DNA of 36,213 nucleotides from an uncultured Lachnospiraceae bacterium. Its GTDB lineage: Bacteria; Bacillota; Clostridia; Lachnospirales; Lachnospiraceae. Below are positions 35 through 21,121 of the stretch, piece by piece; the first letter of the stretch is position 1; each line of letters starts with the position of its first letter. The DNA lies in the NCBI GenBank assembly GCA_946536155.1, contig CAMNEB010000009.1, positions 1 to 36,213 of the forward strand, written 5' to 3'. The translations under genes were made by a program, and so were the position numbers. Below the pieces are notes generated by a model. It saw nothing but the letters and a program-made list of their open reading frames with translations, had not been told where the DNA came from and did no database searches.

Positions 35-2152
35 ATGAAATACTCATCAGTTTCAAGAAAGGCGTTCAAAAATATCATTTCCCTGATGCTCACGGTGTTT
101 GTGACCGCATGCTCTGTCATTGCCGTGACCCCGCTTTCCGTAAAGGCGGCAGATCAGCCCGTCGCATCAAAGGTTGAGACCAATATGTGGGGCTCCGGCG
201 GACAGATATCATTTGACTTAAGCGGCTGCAACGGATATCTGACTGTCACAGCGGTGGTGGAATTCAATGCGGATGTCAATTCTCCGAGCGGATGGGGCTT
301 TGATACCTATACCGCAAACGGAAAACAGGTCACCGCTACGGTCAGGGCAGACGGTGCCAATTCATGGGGATTTAACTCAAACGTCGGTATCCAGGTATCG
401 GGCTCGGGACTTACAGACGCTAAGCTTGTGAGTGTCACGGGCTCCGGATCTTTTGCCGCCCCCGTCATCAACAATCCCAACCAGAACGGACAAAATGATC
501 AGAACGGTCAGGGAGGAGATGCGCCCAAGCCTGATTTTGCCTCACCTGCGGTTTCTGTATGCGGAGAAGCGGGAGATGACTGGCTTACCACCGACGGATC
601 CAGGATCGTCGACATGAACGGCAATGAAGTCTGGCTTACGGGACTCAACTGGTTCGGATACAATACCGGAACCAATCTTTTCGACGGATTGTGGAACGCC
701 GAGCTTGAAACTTCCATAGTTTCTATCGCGGATCACGGATTCAACCTGATGAGGATCCCCATGTCCGCAGAGCTCCTTCTTGAGTGGAAGAAGGGCAATT
801 ATCCAACGGCAAATTACAATCATGCATATAACAGCAATCTGAATTCCCTCAACTCGCTTGAGATATTCGACTATGTCCTTACCCTCTGCGAAGAGAACGG
901 CATCAAGGTCATGATCGATATACACTCTGCAAATACCGATGCTTCGGGACACAATCATCCCGTATGGTATACCGACAGGATAACCGAGGATCAGTATATC
1001 GAGGCACTTACATGGATCGCCGACAGATATAAGAATTTCGATACCATAGTTGCATATGACCTTAAGAACGAGCCTCACGGAAAAGCAAGTGAGCAGACAC
1101 ATGCCATCTGGAACGATTCCGATGATAAGGATAACTGGAAGAGAGCCGCTGAGCGCGCGGGAAATGCCATTCTGAATGTCAATCCCCATGCACTCATAGT
1201 CATAGAGGGTATTCAGATCTATCCCATCAATCCCGCTTCCAACAATTTCACATCAAAAAATGATGCGGATTACTACAATACCTGGTGGGGCGCCAATCTC
1301 ATGGCAGTCAGGGACTATCCCATTGATTTCGGTTCCGCCGCCAAAAATGCACAGATAGTCTATTCGCCTCATGATTACGGTCCTCTTGTCTATCAGCAGC
1401 CCTGGTTTTCCGGCGGCTTCGATTACGATTCCCTTTATGAGGACGCATGGCATGATTACTGGCTCTACATCGAGGAAGAGGATATCGCTCCCATCCTCAT
1501 AGGTGAGTGGGGCGGTTTCATGTCGGGGGATAATCTCAAGTGGATGGAATATCTCAGAGATCTCATCGGCAAGGATAATCTCAATCATACCTTCTGGTGC
1601 TACAACGCCAATTCAGGCGACACCGGCGGACTTGTAAAGGATGATTTCAAGACCTGGGACGAAGAAAAGTATGCACTGGTTAAACCTGTCCTTTGGCAGA
1701 CCCAGTCAGGTAAGTTCATCGGTCTCGACCATAAGGTTGCACTCGGGGCAAACGGCATATCCCTGGGAGATCATGCCGGCAATTCTCCCGAACCTGTGAT
1801 CAATCCCGAGACTGACAGTGCTGTTCTTGCAGGCGGCGCGTCCTCTGATGCGGCATCTGCAGGTGGAGGTCAGACCGGTTCTGCAGGCGATGCCGGATCG
1901 GAAGCCGCAGCGGGATCTTCCGCAGGAGTATCCGAAAATGCCGGACAGGATACGGTCATCGCAGGTCCTCCCACTCAGGAAAATGCCCCTGCAGGGAACG
2001 CGGCAAAGGAGAGCGGCTCGGCATCTTCGCCTCTTATCACCGTGCTCCTTATAGTTGCCATAATACTGCTGGCAGTTTCCGTTTTCCTGTCCCTCAGCAA
2101 CAGGAAAAAAATGCGTCAGAACAGCTCGGACAAAGACTCCGGAGAATTCTAA
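35..2152 (+). CDS. Secreted, C-terminally membrane-anchored GH5-family endoglucanase (cellulase) with an N-terminal putative carbohydrate-binding/beta-sandwich domain
   Basis: N-terminal signal peptide; GH5 motifs DLKNEPHG (acid/base) and ILIGEWGG (nucleophile); Ala/Gly/Ser-rich linker, then C-terminal TM helix (SPLITVLLIVAIILLAVSVFLSL) and short basic tail; RBS gaggag upstream. Confidence 0.93.
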   Translation: MKYSSVSRKAFKNIISLMLTVFVTACSVIAVTPLSVKAADQPVASKVETNMWGSGGQISFDLSGCNGYLTVTAVVEFNADVNSPSGWGFDTYTANGKQVTATVRADGANSWGFNSNVGIQVSGSGLTDAKLVSVTGSGSFAAPVINNPNQNGQNDQNGQGGDAPKPDFASPAVSVCGEAGDDWLTTDGSRIVDMNGNEVWLTGLNWFGYNTGTNLFDGLWNAELETSIVSIADHGFNLMRIPMSAELLLEWKKGNYPTANYNHAYNSNLNSLNSLEIFDYVLTLCEENGIKVMIDIHSANTDASGHNHPVWYTDRITEDQYIEALTWIADRYKNFDTIVAYDLKNEPHGKASEQTHAIWNDSDDKDNWKRAAERAGNAILNVNPHALIVIEGIQIYPINPASNNFTSKNDADYYNTWWGANLMAVRDYPIDFGSAAKNAQIVYSPHDYGPLVYQQPWFSGGFDYDSLYEDAWHDYWLYIEEEDIAPILIGEWGGFMSGDNLKWMEYLRDLIGKDNLNHTFWCYNANSGDTGGLVKDDFKTWDEEKYALVKPVLWQTQSGKFIGLDHKVALGANGISLGDHAGNSPEPVINPETDSAVLAGGASSDAASAGGGQTGSAGDAGSEAAAGSSAGVSENAGQDTVIAGPPTQENAPAGNAAKESGSASSPLITVLLIVAIILLAVSVFLSLSNRKKMRQNSSDKDSGEF

Positions 2153-2157
2153 TATCC

Positions 2158-2187
2158 TTGAAATAAAGGGCGCTTTTAAGATATAAT
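2158..2187 (+). promoter_or_regulatory. Putative sigma-A promoter: TTGAAA -18 nt- TATAAT
   Basis: Direct match to -35/-10 hexamers just upstream of the GH13-like gene. Confidence 0.55.
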
Positions 2188-2212
2188 ATATTGAATTGCG
2201 GAGGCTTTGCAG

Positions 2213-4060
2213 ATGAACAGAAAAGGCAACAATTTTATATTTCCGCTTATTACGCAGGTGACTGACGACGGTATAAGATTTTGCCTTGAAACATCATCAA
2301 ATGACTGCGGTATCATCATTTATGATATTGTCTCCGGCAAAGAACTTGAGAAGATCCCTTTCGGTCCGGAAGACCGTATCGGGAATCTCTGCTGCAAGAC
2401 AGTTTCCGGATTTGATGCATCCCGCATCTCTTATGTCTATTATTCGGGAGGAGAGACTCTGACCGATTGCAGGGCGACCGGGCTTCTGGGCGGAAGGGTA
2501 TACGGAAAGCCCGTTGCAGAACCCCTTAAAGCCGTTATTCGCGAAGATTCCTATGATTGGGAAGATGACGCATATCCCCGTATAAGCTTTGAAGAGAGCT
2601 TTTATTATCTGCTCCATGTAAGGGGATTTACCAATTCTCCCTCTTCGGGAGTAAAGCACAGAGGTACTTTTGCGGGGATCACGGAGAAGATAGATCATTT
2701 AAGGTCTTTCGGGATCACGACCCTTGAACTCCAGCCCGCCTATGAATTTATCGAAACGGAATGCAGGCCAGGTATAGATCCTGCCTACGGATACGCCGGA
2801 AGGACGACGGTTCCTTCCGTTCCCGGCAAGCTTAATTACTGGGGTTACAAGCCCGGATATTATTATGCACCCAAACAGGCATATTCATCATCTGATGATG
2901 CCTGCACAGAGTTTAAAGACATGGTCAAAGCTCTCCACAAAAACGGTATGGAGCTTTGCATGCAGTTTCATTTTGCACCGGATTTTCCGGAGTCTGAGGT
3001 CCTTGAGATCCTCAGATACTGGGTGGTCAATTATCATGTTGACGGATTCCACCTGATGGGAATAAACATCCCCATGAGACTGGTATCCTCGGATCCGCTC
3101 CTTGCGGGGACAAAGATCTTAAACGATCATCTGGACAATGTGGATTTCGGATGCATCGGTTCTTCCATGCAGAAGAGATTCATCGGTCTGTATTCGGATG
3201 AGTTTGAGTATCCACTCAGAAGGCTTCTGAAAAGTGATGAAGGCATGGTGTCGGCATCGCTCCTTGCACTCAGATCGAATCCCGGGGATTTCGGACGCAT
3301 AAACTTTCTTTCTTCATACCGCGGATTTACTCTCATGGACCTTGTCAGCTATGACCGCAAACACAACGAAGAGAACGGTGAAGAGGGAAGGGACGGCAGT
3401 GACTGCAACTACAGCTGGAACTGCGGTGAGGAAGGCCCCACCCGCAAGAAGAAGATACGTGAGCTGAGACTCAGACAGATAAAGAACGCTTACAGCCTTC
3501 TGATGCTGGGCGCCGGAACTCCCCTTATCTTTATGGGCGATGAGTTCGGCAATTCCCAGAAGGGCAATAACAATCCCTATTGCATAGATTCACCGGTGAC
3601 ATGGCTGGACTGGAAAAATGCGGATTCTTTTTCGGAGCTTACGGAATTCCTTAAGAAGCTGGTACTTCTCAGGAAAAAACATAAGGTCTTTTGCAAAGAC
3701 AGGGAGCTCTACACCGTTGATTCCGAGAATTGCGGATATCCCGAGATGAGCTATCATTCGGATACCGCATACAGAGTATCGGATGAATACTATTCAAGGT
3801 CCTTCGGCATCATGTACTGTGAGAACTGCGGAAGATCGCTCATATATGCGGCGGTCAACATGAACTGGGAAGAGACCACACTGGCCCTTCCGAGACCTCC
3901 CAAGGGATATGAATGGAGCGTAAGTCTTTCCACGGATCCCGCAGGCGGCAGTATATGCCGTGAGGATGAGTCTTTAAGAACCATACCGGGACGCACGGTT
4001 ACATTTTTTGAAACGGTCCCGAAAAAGTCCGGAAATAAACGATCAAAGGAAGATAAATGA
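2213..4060 (+). CDS. GH13-like protein (isoamylase/GlgX/type I pullulanase-like), predicted catalytically inactive pseudoenzyme
   Basis: Family hallmarks HRGTFAGITEKIDHLRSFGITTLELQP, LNYWGYKPGYYYAPKQAYSS, GTPLIFMGDEFGNSQKGNNNPYCID; catalytic motifs substituted (see findings). Track ORF starts at TTG 2207; ATG 2213 with upstream GGAGG is the likely start. Confidence 0.88.
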   Translation: MNRKGNNFIFPLITQVTDDGIRFCLETSSNDCGIIIYDIVSGKELEKIPFGPEDRIGNLCCKTVSGFDASRISYVYYSGGETLTDCRATGLLGGRVYGKPVAEPLKAVIREDSYDWEDDAYPRISFEESFYYLLHVRGFTNSPSSGVKHRGTFAGITEKIDHLRSFGITTLELQPAYEFIETECRPGIDPAYGYAGRTTVPSVPGKLNYWGYKPGYYYAPKQAYSSSDDACTEFKDMVKALHKNGMELCMQFHFAPDFPESEVLEILRYWVVNYHVDGFHLMGINIPMRLVSSDPLLAGTKILNDHLDNVDFGCIGSSMQKRFIGLYSDEFEYPLRRLLKSDEGMVSASLLALRSNPGDFGRINFLSSYRGFTLMDLVSYDRKHNEENGEEGRDGSDCNYSWNCGEEGPTRKKKIRELRLRQIKNAYSLLMLGAGTPLIFMGDEFGNSQKGNNNPYCIDSPVTWLDWKNADSFSELTEFLKKLVLLRKKHKVFCKDRELYTVDSENCGYPEMSYHSDTAYRVSDEYYSRSFGIMYCENCGRSLIYAAVNMNWEETTLALPRPPKGYEWSVSLSTDPAGGSICREDESLRTIPGRTVTFFETVPKKSGNKRSKEDK

Positions 4061-4650
4061 GCGATTCGTTTTTTTGCAGATTCATCAGACATTTTGTGAC
4101 CATTACAAAACACAGGCTCCTTGTCTGTAAAGGATGCTTTAAGATAGGGCTCTATTATCAGGGGCTCACTCATGACCTCTCAAAATATTCTCCCGATGAA
4201 TTCCTCGTGGGAGTTAAGTATTATCAGGGTACCAGGAGTCCCAACAATGCGGAGAGGGAGGATAAGGGATATTCCTCCGCATGGCTCCATCACAAAGGTC
4301 GTAACAAGCACCATTACGAGTACTGGATCGATTACAATACGAGAGGGGACGTACCCGGTGAAGACGTTCTCCTGCCTGTTGCAATGCCGGATAAATATCT
4401 TGCCGAGATGGTCATTGACAGGATAGCGGCATCGAAGGTCTATAAGGGCAGTGATTACAAGGATTCCGATCCTCTCGATTATTTTCTCAGCGGTCTTGAG
4501 ACCGTTCCCATGCATCCGGATACCAGGAAGAGACTCCGCAGGTATCTGATGATCCTCGCAAAATACGGCGAGGAGAAGACCTTCAGGCTCATAAAGTATG
4601 AACTGAGACACGGCCGTTACATTCCAAAGAGTAAAAGAAAAGAAGCTTGA
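4057..4650 (+). CDS. DUF5662 family protein
   Basis: THDLSKYSPDEF and HHKGRNKHHYEYW motifs typical of the family; ATGA overlap with upstream stop. Confidence 0.75.
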   Translation: MSDSFFCRFIRHFVTITKHRLLVCKGCFKIGLYYQGLTHDLSKYSPDEFLVGVKYYQGTRSPNNAEREDKGYSSAWLHHKGRNKHHYEYWIDYNTRGDVPGEDVLLPVAMPDKYLAEMVIDRIAASKVYKGSDYKDSDPLDYFLSGLETVPMHPDTRKRLRRYLMILAKYGEEKTFRLIKYELRHGRYIPKSKRKEA

Positions 4651-18907: not shown

Positions 18908-21121
18908 ATGAATAAGAGACTTTATAAATTAATGGACTGGGCCTTTATCGAAGAGGTCATTTACTCGGAGTGCGTCCATCCCCAGGATCTTCTCGGACCT
19001 CATGCCAAGGGTCAGACAACTCTTTTACAGGCATTTTTTCCGGGATCCGAATCGGTAGTTGTCAAATGGAAGGACAGAGGCGAAGCAGGCAAGCCCAACG
19101 AGACCAGAATGGAAGTTGCGGATGATGACGGATTCTACGCACAGCTCCTTCCCACCAAAGATCCCGGTCCCTATACATATTATGTGACCTATGAGGAGAG
19201 GCTCGAGGACGGCAAGACCAGCAGGAAGAAGACTGTTAAGTTCGGCGATCCCTACAGACATAAGAATATCCTGAAAAAAGAAGATATAGACAGATTCACA
19301 CAGGGAACCTGTAATGATGCGGATCTTATGCTGGGTGCCCATCCCTGCACCATCGATGAAGAAGAGGGTGTTCTCTTTGCGGTATATGCGCCTAATGCCA
19401 TGAGGATCAGCGTGGTGGGAGATTTCAATTCATGGGATCCCAGGCTCCATCAGATGTGCAAACGTGAAGATTCCGGTATCTTCGAGCTCTTTGTTCCCGG
19501 AGCAAAGACAGGCGACAGATATCAGTACGAGATAAAGTTCGGAAATTACGAGATCCGCAGATTTTCGGATCCCTATGCCGTTTGCGTCTGTCCCGAAAAT
19601 AAAACGGTATCCGTGGTCGGAAAGGCTGCTGCGGGAAAGCCCGCACAGGCTCCGAAAAAAGCAAAGGCTCAGGATGTTACGGGCCTGCCCATTAGCATTT
19701 ACCAGGCAGATCCCTATTCCTATGCGGGAGGTGAGACTTCAGCCTTTGCAAGGATGAGCGAAGAACTTGTGCCTTATGTGGTCAAATGCGGTTTTTCACA
19801 CATCTGCATCGGCAATATTCTTTCAAGCTCCGGCAGGCATGACAAGACACTGTCCTATTTTGCCCCGGATCCCGCACTCGGAACAGAAGAAGAATTTGAA
19901 AAGCTGGTTAAAACTTTCAGGGACAAAGGAGTTTCGGTAATCCTTGACTGGATCCCTTCGTATTTTGCCCCGGATCAGGGAGGCTTATCCGGATTTGACG
20001 GAACATCTCTTTATGAGCATAACGATCCCAGACAGGGATATGCCCAGGACATCGGTGCATGTCTTTTCAACTATTCGAGCAATACCGTCCGCAATTTCCT
20101 TTTTTCCTCAGGCTTTGCCCTTGTAAGGAAATTCGGTATAGACGGACTCAGAGTCTTCGGAACTGCCAGGATGCTTTATCTTGACTACGGAAAGAGCGAC
20201 TGGGTACCCAACATCTACGGCGGAAATGAGAATCTAGACGCGATCTCATTTCTTCAGGAGTTTAATACCGCCATACGCAAGGCTTATCCCGGAACTCTTA
20301 TGATCGCCGAGGATTCGTCCCTCCATCAGGGAATAACCGATCCCGTAGGCAGAAACGGACTCGGCTTTGATCTTAAGTGGAATGAAGTATTCTATGATGA
20401 TTACAGAGCCTTCATATCACTGGATCCCCTTTACAGGGGCAGGGAGCTTCATTCCCTCGCAGACTCCATGACCTATGCCTTTGTCGAGAATTTCGTCCTG
20501 CCCTTTGCAGGAAATGAAAAGACTGAAAAGGTCGGAAGATTTGAGGATATGCTTCAGGGAGATGATGATGCGAGACAGTCACAGAAGAGGCTTTCCCTAG
20601 GGTACCTGTTCACACATCCCGGCAAGAAACTCATAGGACTTAAGCCGGATGGGTCGGATGAAGCCATCATCACCGCACTCAACCAGCTCTACAAAAAAGA
20701 GCCTGCCCTGAGCATGAACGAATCGGATCCCGAGTGCTTTGAGTGGCTCAGCAATATGAACACTGAGAGCTCATGTGTATCCTTTGTGAGAAAGACAGAT
20801 GATCCCGAGGATATGCTGGTCGTCATCGCAAACTTCTCCGGCATCGAGCAGAATTTCCAGACCGGCGTTCCCTATGAGGGAAAATACAAAGAGATATTCA
20901 CGACGGACGATAAGGCTTTCGGCGGCGGATCTTCGGTCTCAAAATCCATCAGGAAAGCATGCGATAAAAGACTTGACGGAAGGACCCAGTCCATCGCGGT
21001 AAAGATCAGACCTCAGTCACTCATCATCATGAAGTTCATCCCCTATACCGAGGAAGAACTCGAAAAAGTCATAGAGCAGAGGATAAGAAATTACACTCCC
21101 ATCAAAAAGACTAAGAAGTGA
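18908..21121 (+). CDS. GlgB-like (GH13 branching-enzyme family) protein with CBM48-like module, predicted catalytically inactive pseudoenzyme
   Basis: GDFNSWDPRLHQMCK...GIFELFVPG (CBM48-like), VSVILDWIPSYFAPDQGGLSGFDGTSLYEHNDPRQG, MLYLDYGKSDWVPNIYGGNENLDAISFLQEFN; catalytic Asp residues substituted (see findings). Confidence 0.9.
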   Translation: MNKRLYKLMDWAFIEEVIYSECVHPQDLLGPHAKGQTTLLQAFFPGSESVVVKWKDRGEAGKPNETRMEVADDDGFYAQLLPTKDPGPYTYYVTYEERLEDGKTSRKKTVKFGDPYRHKNILKKEDIDRFTQGTCNDADLMLGAHPCTIDEEEGVLFAVYAPNAMRISVVGDFNSWDPRLHQMCKREDSGIFELFVPGAKTGDRYQYEIKFGNYEIRRFSDPYAVCVCPENKTVSVVGKAAAGKPAQAPKKAKAQDVTGLPISIYQADPYSYAGGETSAFARMSEELVPYVVKCGFSHICIGNILSSSGRHDKTLSYFAPDPALGTEEEFEKLVKTFRDKGVSVILDWIPSYFAPDQGGLSGFDGTSLYEHNDPRQGYAQDIGACLFNYSSNTVRNFLFSSGFALVRKFGIDGLRVFGTARMLYLDYGKSDWVPNIYGGNENLDAISFLQEFNTAIRKAYPGTLMIAEDSSLHQGITDPVGRNGLGFDLKWNEVFYDDYRAFISLDPLYRGRELHSLADSMTYAFVENFVLPFAGNEKTEKVGRFEDMLQGDDDARQSQKRLSLGYLFTHPGKKLIGLKPDGSDEAIITALNQLYKKEPALSMNESDPECFEWLSNMNTESSCVSFVRKTDDPEDMLVVIANFSGIEQNFQTGVPYEGKYKEIFTTDDKAFGGGSSVSKSIRKACDKRLDGRTQSIAVKIRPQSLIIMKFIPYTEEELEKVIEQRIRNYTPIKKTKK

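What the first reader, a model, noticed from the sequence alone, without database searches (positions are those of the whole stretch)
2213..4060. Isoamylase/GlgX-like GH13 protein that has lost the catalytic triad: candidate pseudoenzyme
The family scaffold is well preserved, but each catalytic motif is changed. Region II, usually VDGFRFDLA, reads VDGFHLMGI, so the nucleophile Asp is Met. Region III, usually LLAGTKxxAEPWD, reads LLAGTKILNDHLD, so the acid/base Glu is Asp. Region IV, usually FVTAHDGFTLNDLVSYNxKHN, reads FLSSYRGFTLMDLVSYDRKHN, so the catalytic His-Asp is Tyr-Arg. Region I, usually DVVYNHT, reads MQFHFAP. The outer substrate-shell motif GDEFGNSQKGNNNPYCID is retained. The frame is intact over 615 codons, which suggests selection for a non-hydrolytic role such as glucan binding, scaffolding or regulation. 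Plant ISA2 is a known precedent: a non-catalytic isoamylase acting as a regulatory partner of ISA1.
Basis: partly seen in the sequence, partly recalled or inferred. Interest (0 to 1): 0.85.

Follow-up and report, generated by a model that had tools for sequence, protein, structure and literature searches.

The report
Dead debranching-enzyme look-alike kept by gut bacteria
Most Lachnospiraceae genera sampled carry a copy of the glycogen-debranching enzyme that has lost its catalytic residues but kept its fold and most of its sugar-contacting residues under strong selection, so it probably holds or senses glycogen rather than cutting it; in this genus a dead copy of the branching enzyme sits about 15 kb away.

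Summary
Window 2213-4060 encodes a 615-residue isoamylase/GlgX-type protein without the GH13 catalytic triad. It is one member of a monophyletic, Lachnospiraceae-restricted family found in 45 of 57 other sampled genera. The nucleophile Asp is absent from all members in the alignment (one has an Asp in raw register), and dN/dS is about 0.05-0.13. The AlphaFold model (pLDDT 90.6) matches isoamylase ISA1 over its whole length. Residues that contact acarbose in Streptomyces GlgX separate cleanly: five non-catalytic contacts are all kept in 75 of 82 members, while at most one of six catalytic-centre residues is kept in 69 of 82. I therefore favour a cytoplasmic, non-hydrolytic alpha-glucan-binding protein of glycogen metabolism. 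It is also not ISA2 itself, lacking the extra N-terminal domain. It is often followed, with overlapping codons, by DUF5662 (unknown function). Unexpectedly, a GlgB paralog at 18908-21121 in the same window is also catalytically dead, and this is conserved across the genus. No paper found describes either. Glucan binding is inferred, not shown.

The parts
2213..4060 (+). Pseudo-GlgX: catalytically dead GH13 isoamylase-type protein, 615 aa, no apparent signal peptide (by eye)
2158..2187 (+). Promoter-like TTGAAA-18-TATAAT just upstream of the gene (11 of 12 matches)
   Evidence: consensus match only
2200..2204 (+). Shine-Dalgarno-like GGAGG, 8 nt before ATG 2213
   Evidence: sequence printed
2249..2482 (+). 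CBM48-like N-terminal beta-sandwich; below Pfam threshold in the window, over threshold in relative L040
2840..2848 (+). Trp210 and Tyr212, equivalent to the -1 sugar platform Trp222/Tyr224 of Streptomyces GlgX; kept in 82 and 79 of 82
   Evidence: PMC9530166
2960..2980 (+). Region I remnant MQFHFAP (active: DVVYNHT); the following ~57-aa loop is deleted
3038..3064 (+). Region II VDGFHLMGI: nucleophile Asp replaced by Met283
3098..3136 (+). Region III LLAGTKILNDHLD: acid/base Glu replaced by Asp305
3305..3340 (+). Region IV FLSSYRGFTLMD: His-Asp replaced by Tyr369-Arg370
3380..3382 (+). Glu390, equivalent to distal sugar contact Glu470; kept in 80 of 82
3572..3580 (+). Asn454 and Tyr456 in GNNNPYC, equivalent to distal sugar contacts Asn534/Tyr536; kept in 82 and 78 of 82
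4057..4650 (+). DUF5662 gene whose ATG overlaps the pseudo-GlgX stop (ATGA 4057-4060); downstream partner in many genera; conserved HD and HHKGRNKHH motifs, function unknown
   Evidence: no PDB match by sequence or fold
18908..21121 (+). Pseudo-GlgB: branching-enzyme paralog with nucleophile Asp to Phe (DGLRVFGT) and region IV His-Asp to Gly-Asn (FAGNE); 13.5-17 kb from pseudo-GlgX on the same contig in about 12 genomes of the genus

Best explanation
This is a non-catalytic paralog of the glycogen debranching enzyme GlgX that works as a cytoplasmic alpha-glucan (glycogen or maltodextrin) binding protein. Shown here: the catalytic residues and the loops of strands beta3 to beta6 that carry them are gone across the family; the fold is predicted intact; sugar-contact residues on the beta2, beta7 and beta8 side and the C-terminal domain are retained under purifying selection. 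Inferred: the retained half-cleft, helped by the CBM48-like domain, binds glucan chains without cutting them, and through this binding the protein recruits, shields or reports on glycogen for enzymes that are present (GlgA, GlgB, GlgP, or GlgX where it exists), probably together with its co-expressed neighbour DUF5662.
For: All GH13 signature residues are lost across 82-85 aligned members. dN/dS is 0.05-0.13. The model has pLDDT 90.6 and pTM 0.91; the best Foldseek match is rice ISA1 9j60 (TM 0.82), then GlgX and TreX. Of residues contacting acarbose in Streptomyces GlgX (PMC9530166), W222, Y224, E470, N534 and Y536 are all kept in 75 of 82 members, while 69 of 82 keep at most one of H271, D342, E378, W380, H449 and D450. 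Residues invariant in active GlgX are kept at 78-94% in beta1-beta2 and 79-89% in beta7-beta8 but only 20-41% in beta3-beta6. Glycogen synthesis genes (glgA, glgD) are near universal in these genomes.
Against: No binding has been measured. Several retained residues (NNN, W, Y) may be structural, and Arg212 could not be placed. The gene is not in a glycogen operon: its neighbours are gltX, uvrD, DUF1292, DUF5662 and trpS. glgA is so common in the family that co-occurrence has no power to test the link. The N-terminal domain is below the CBM48 threshold in the window protein.
Confidence: 0.55

Rival explanations
1. Scaffold or sensor without polysaccharide binding: the old cleft binds a small effector, or serves only as a protein interface, mainly with DUF5662.
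For: DUF5662 lies directly downstream in many genera, often overlapping or within a few bases. New invariant positions (K221, D503) differ from active enzymes. There is no glycogen-operon linkage.
Against: The residues kept are specifically the sugar contacts. DUF5662 also occurs without pseudo-GlgX and is absent from some genomes that have it.
Confidence: 0.2
2. ISA2-like subunit: it forms a heteromer with the active GlgX of the same cell and tunes its activity or localisation.
For: The plant precedent ISA2 has the same kinds of catalytic loss (PMC12510319) and increases ISA1 activity in rice (PMC12892837). This genome and 13-15 genera carry both proteins.
Against: About 30 of 45 genera with the pseudo protein have no detected GlgX. 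ISA2's extra N-terminal beta-sandwich is missing.
Confidence: 0.12
3. Cryptic enzyme: it still acts on alpha-glucans with non-canonical residues.
For: At least 14 near-complete genomes that carry glycogen synthesis genes have this as their only isoamylase-type protein and no strong match to other debranching families tested.
Against: No family-conserved new carboxylate appears at strand ends; the only invariant ones there (GDE on beta8) are also present in active enzymes. Positions of the nucleophile, acid/base and transition-state residues vary freely. Other possible debranchers (GH31, other GH13 subfamilies) were not searched.
Confidence: 0.06
4. Decaying gene on its way to loss.
For: Catalytic residues are lost and end branches in the tree are long.
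Against: Intact frames in the retrieved orthologs, dN/dS around 0.05-0.13, conserved motifs over 80 sequences, retained in 45 of 57 genera.
Confidence: 0.01

Closest known systems
Plant isoamylase ISA2 (GH13_11)
   Same: GlgX/isoamylase paralog with the nucleophile and other catalytic residues replaced, kept over long evolution; not the active debrancher (PMC12510319).
   Different: ISA2 carries an extra N-terminal beta-sandwich and pairs with ISA1. This family lacks that domain, is confined to Lachnospiraceae in the samples taken, has a deleted beta3-alpha3 loop, and often occurs without an active GlgX.
Bacterial GlgX / archaeal TreX glycogen debranching enzymes (GH13_11)
   Same: Fold and domain order; sister group in the tree; retained distal sugar contacts.
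   Different: No catalytic triad; TIGR02100 score 274.5 against a cut-off of 640.9.
glgX2 of Butyrivibrio hungatei MB2003 (annotated glycogen debranching enzyme, 648 aa, no CBM48)
   Same: A shorter second GlgX beside a 726-aa CBM48-bearing glgX1 (PMC5716241); length and domain pattern match this family.
   Different: Sequence not available here, so identity is inferred; annotated there as an active enzyme.
GlgD, regulatory paralog of GlgC in Firmicutes
   Same: A regulatory paralog of a glycogen enzyme retained in the same lineage (general knowledge; PMC10395257 calls it a regulatory subunit).
   Different: Different fold and step; acts in an operon with its partner.

Membership tests
Active GlgX / isoamylase (GH13_11, TIGR02100) | CBM48-like N domain, (beta/alpha)8 barrel, C-terminal beta-sandwich | tested here: met
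   Model pLDDT 90.6, ISA1 TM 0.82; Pfam CBM_48 over cut-off only in relative L040
Active GlgX / isoamylase (GH13_11, TIGR02100) | Catalytic Asp/Glu/Asp triad | tested here: not met
   Met283, Asp305, Arg370; the nucleophile column is empty in all 85 aligned members
Active GlgX / isoamylase (GH13_11, TIGR02100) | Score over the curated equivalog cut-off | tested here: not met
   274.5 bits against 640.9
Active GlgX / isoamylase (GH13_11, TIGR02100) | Hydrolysis of alpha-1,6 branches | not testable with these tools
   needs an assay
Plant ISA2 | At least 4 of 5 conserved catalytic residues varied, nucleophile included | tested here: met
   criterion from PMC12510319
Plant ISA2 | Additional N-terminal beta-sandwich before CBM48 | tested here: not met
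   615-aa model begins with the CBM48-like sandwich at residue 21; criterion from PMC12510319
Plant ISA2 | Common descent with ISA2 | tested here: inconclusive
   Profile scores ISA1 426 bits, ISA2 231 bits; plant sequences were not in the tree; pseudo clade is sister to clostridial GlgX
Plant ISA2 | Works in complex with an active isoamylase | not testable with these tools
   Indirect evidence against as a rule: about 30 genera lack a detected GlgX
Pseudoenzyme (general) | Catalytic residues lost while the protein stays under purifying selection | tested here: met

The most novel reading that the evidence does not exclude
In this genus both enzymes that set glycogen branching have conserved, dead twins encoded about 15 kb apart: pseudo-GlgX removes no branches and pseudo-GlgB makes none. 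Both would bind glucan and act together as a non-catalytic module that shapes, protects or senses the glycogen particle. The GlgX twin would be family-wide and more widespread than active GlgX itself.
Probability: 0.3. Interest if true: 0.8.

Novelty: new variant of a known kind. Interest (0 to 1): 0.66.

Why it matters
A recent Plant Cell paper (PMC12510319) states that why a non-catalytic isoamylase keeps being selected in plants is not understood. An apparently independent bacterial case, shared by most Lachnospiraceae genera sampled and often present without any active GlgX, offers a second system in which to ask what a dead debranching enzyme does. It also warns that such genes are likely being counted as debranching enzymes in gut and rumen genomes (glgX2 in Butyrivibrio hungatei looks like one), which would distort predictions of glycogen breakdown.

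Tried and rejected
Pseudogene or sequencing error: rejected, since intact, selected orthologs were found across many genera. Misplaced catalytic residues elsewhere in the fold: profile and structure alignments place the lost positions in register, and no new conserved strand-end carboxylate was found. Co-occurrence with glycogen synthesis: uninformative because glgA and glgD are near universal. Function of DUF5662: model pLDDT 77, no PDB match by fold or sequence, no paper. Distribution: in a sample of 291 genomes of the class only Lachnospiraceae (group f1) had full-length matches. Paper searches for a bacterial non-catalytic GlgX or GlgB found none. CBM48 scan over the whole alignment was over the size limit. 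The rice ISA1-ISA2 paper was not held. L125 and L126 (G403, G399), labelled pseudo by my script in the tree, keep the nucleophile Asp (IDGFRIDEA, VDGFRVDEF) and are active-type, which explains the single 'pseudo' row outside the clade.

Full report
The open reading frame is real and intact. It runs from ATG 2213 to the TGA at 4058-4060, with GGAGG at 2200-2204 and a promoter-like TTGAAA-18-TATAAT at 2158-2187. Its best profile is TIGR02100 (GlgX, E 1.5e-81) but at 274.5 bits against a cut-off of 640.9; its best solved relatives are plant ISA1 and bacterial GlgX. The genome also carries a separate 763-aa GlgX with all motifs intact (G000:C129).

I aligned 85 relatives of the short kind with 27 GlgX that carry all catalytic residues. 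The region I Asp is Glu or Gln in 81 of 85. The nucleophile Asp column is empty in all 85, and in raw register one sequence (L104) has an Asp. The acid/base Glu is Glu in 11. The region IV His and Asp are kept in 15 and 12. Of the triad, 61 of 82 near-full-length members keep none and only one keeps two. A profile of the family aligned to ISA1 and TreX chains gives the same register. The excursion between regions I and II is deleted.

The family is old, single in origin and restricted. In a maximum-likelihood tree the 40 true pseudo rows form one clade (SH-aLRT 100), sister to the clostridial active GlgX; this was a quick tree with some long branches. Among 57 other genera of the family, 45 have it. 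In 291 genomes spread over the class only group f1 genomes have full-length matches; named relatives identify the family as Lachnospiraceae. Pairwise dN/dS is 0.05-0.13 where dS is measurable, so it is not decaying; several pairs have saturated dS.

Structure: AlphaFold2 from 82 sequences gives pLDDT 90.6 and pTM 0.91, with an N-terminal beta-sandwich, the eight barrel strands and a C-terminal sandwich. Foldseek matches rice ISA1 at TM 0.82, and TreX and GlgX nearly as well.

The pattern of loss points to function. Residues invariant in active GlgX are kept at 78-94% in beta1-beta2 and 79-89% in beta7-beta8, but only 20-41% in beta3 to beta6. The structure of Streptomyces venezuelae GlgX with acarbose lists its sugar contacts (PMC9530166). 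I mapped them through the alignments: Trp222, Tyr224, Glu470, Asn534 and Tyr536 are all kept in 75 of 82 pseudo members, while 69 of 82 keep at most one of His271, Asp342, Glu378, Trp380, His449 and Asp450. The split of contacts into binding and chemistry residues is mine. Arg212 could not be placed. The simplest reading is a cleft that still holds glucan but cannot cut it. Some of the kept residues may be structural, so binding remains an inference.

The ISA2 comparison holds only in part. ISA2 is likewise a dead isoamylase under long-term selection (PMC12510319). But ISA2 has an extra N-terminal beta-sandwich, which this protein lacks, and it works with ISA1. Here about 30 of 45 genera with the dead protein show no GlgX by two searches. 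Fourteen genomes of at least 90% completeness (G007, G014, G037, G042, G049, G052, G057, G059, G063, G067, G068, G073, G074, G084) also lack a pullulanase above cut-off and a strong GDE_C match; five have weak ones. Nearly all sampled family genomes have glgA and glgD. How these genomes debranch glycogen is open, and draft genomes may miss genes.

Neighbourhood: the gene is not in a glycogen operon. In many genera it lies after gltX, a UvrD-type helicase and DUF1292 and before DUF5662 or TraX (names other than DUF5662 are my reading of the sequences). DUF5662 follows directly, often overlapping, across many genera; it is also present without pseudo-GlgX. Its conserved His/Asp motifs suggest a metal site, but fold and sequence searches found nothing. 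Three relatives (L040, L041, L064) have a methylguanine-DNA methyltransferase fused to the C-terminus.

A second dead enzyme lies in the same window. ORF 18908-21121 is a GlgB paralog with CBM48, GlgB_N and C-terminal domains and region II DGLRVFGT for DGIRVDAV, region IV FAGNE for SHDE. All 28 full-length orthologs examined from the genus, the window's included, lack the nucleophile Asp and the region IV His-Asp. One more (L164) keeps an Asp at the nucleophile but lacks the region IV pair. Active GlgB copies sit elsewhere in these genomes. dN/dS is 0.04-0.11. In about twelve genomes it lies 13.5-17 kb from pseudo-GlgX on the same contig (positions). Dead GlgB paralogs also appear in four other genera (L165, L170, L173, L181).

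Novelty: no paper found describes a non-catalytic GlgX or GlgB family in bacteria (the library holds only open-licence papers). Butyrivibrio hungatei glgX2 (648 aa, no CBM48) beside glgX1 (726 aa, CBM48) is probably a named member annotated as active (PMC5716241), not verified by sequence. I rate it a new variant of a known kind.

Noticed in passing
window 18908-21121 (+): GlgB-type branching enzyme paralog is also catalytically dead (nucleophile Asp to Phe, region IV His-Asp to Gly-Asn), conserved across the genus with dN/dS 0.04-0.11.
   Followed up: partly
L040:5887-8292, L041:5827-8292, L064:5911-8349: Pseudo-GlgX fused at its C-terminus to a complete O6-methylguanine-DNA methyltransferase (PF01035/PF02870), an unexpected domain pairing.
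   Followed up: partly
window 4057-4650 (+): DUF5662: strongly conserved HD and HHKGRNKHH motifs, downstream partner of pseudo-GlgX in many genera, no known fold match.
   Followed up: partly
G007, G014, G037, G042, G049, G052, G057, G059, G063, G067, G068, G073, G074, G084 (handles): Near-complete Lachnospiraceae genomes with glycogen synthesis genes but no GlgX, no pullulanase above cut-off and no strong GDE match; their route of glycogen debranching is unclear.
   Followed up: partly
L165, L170, L173, L181: GlgB paralogs from four other genera that also lack catalytic motifs, suggesting repeated loss of catalysis in duplicated branching enzymes.
   Followed up: no
window 35-2152 (+): GH5 cellulase with a signal-like N-terminus and a C-terminal membrane-anchor-like segment, directly upstream of the pseudo-GlgX promoter.
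   Followed up: no
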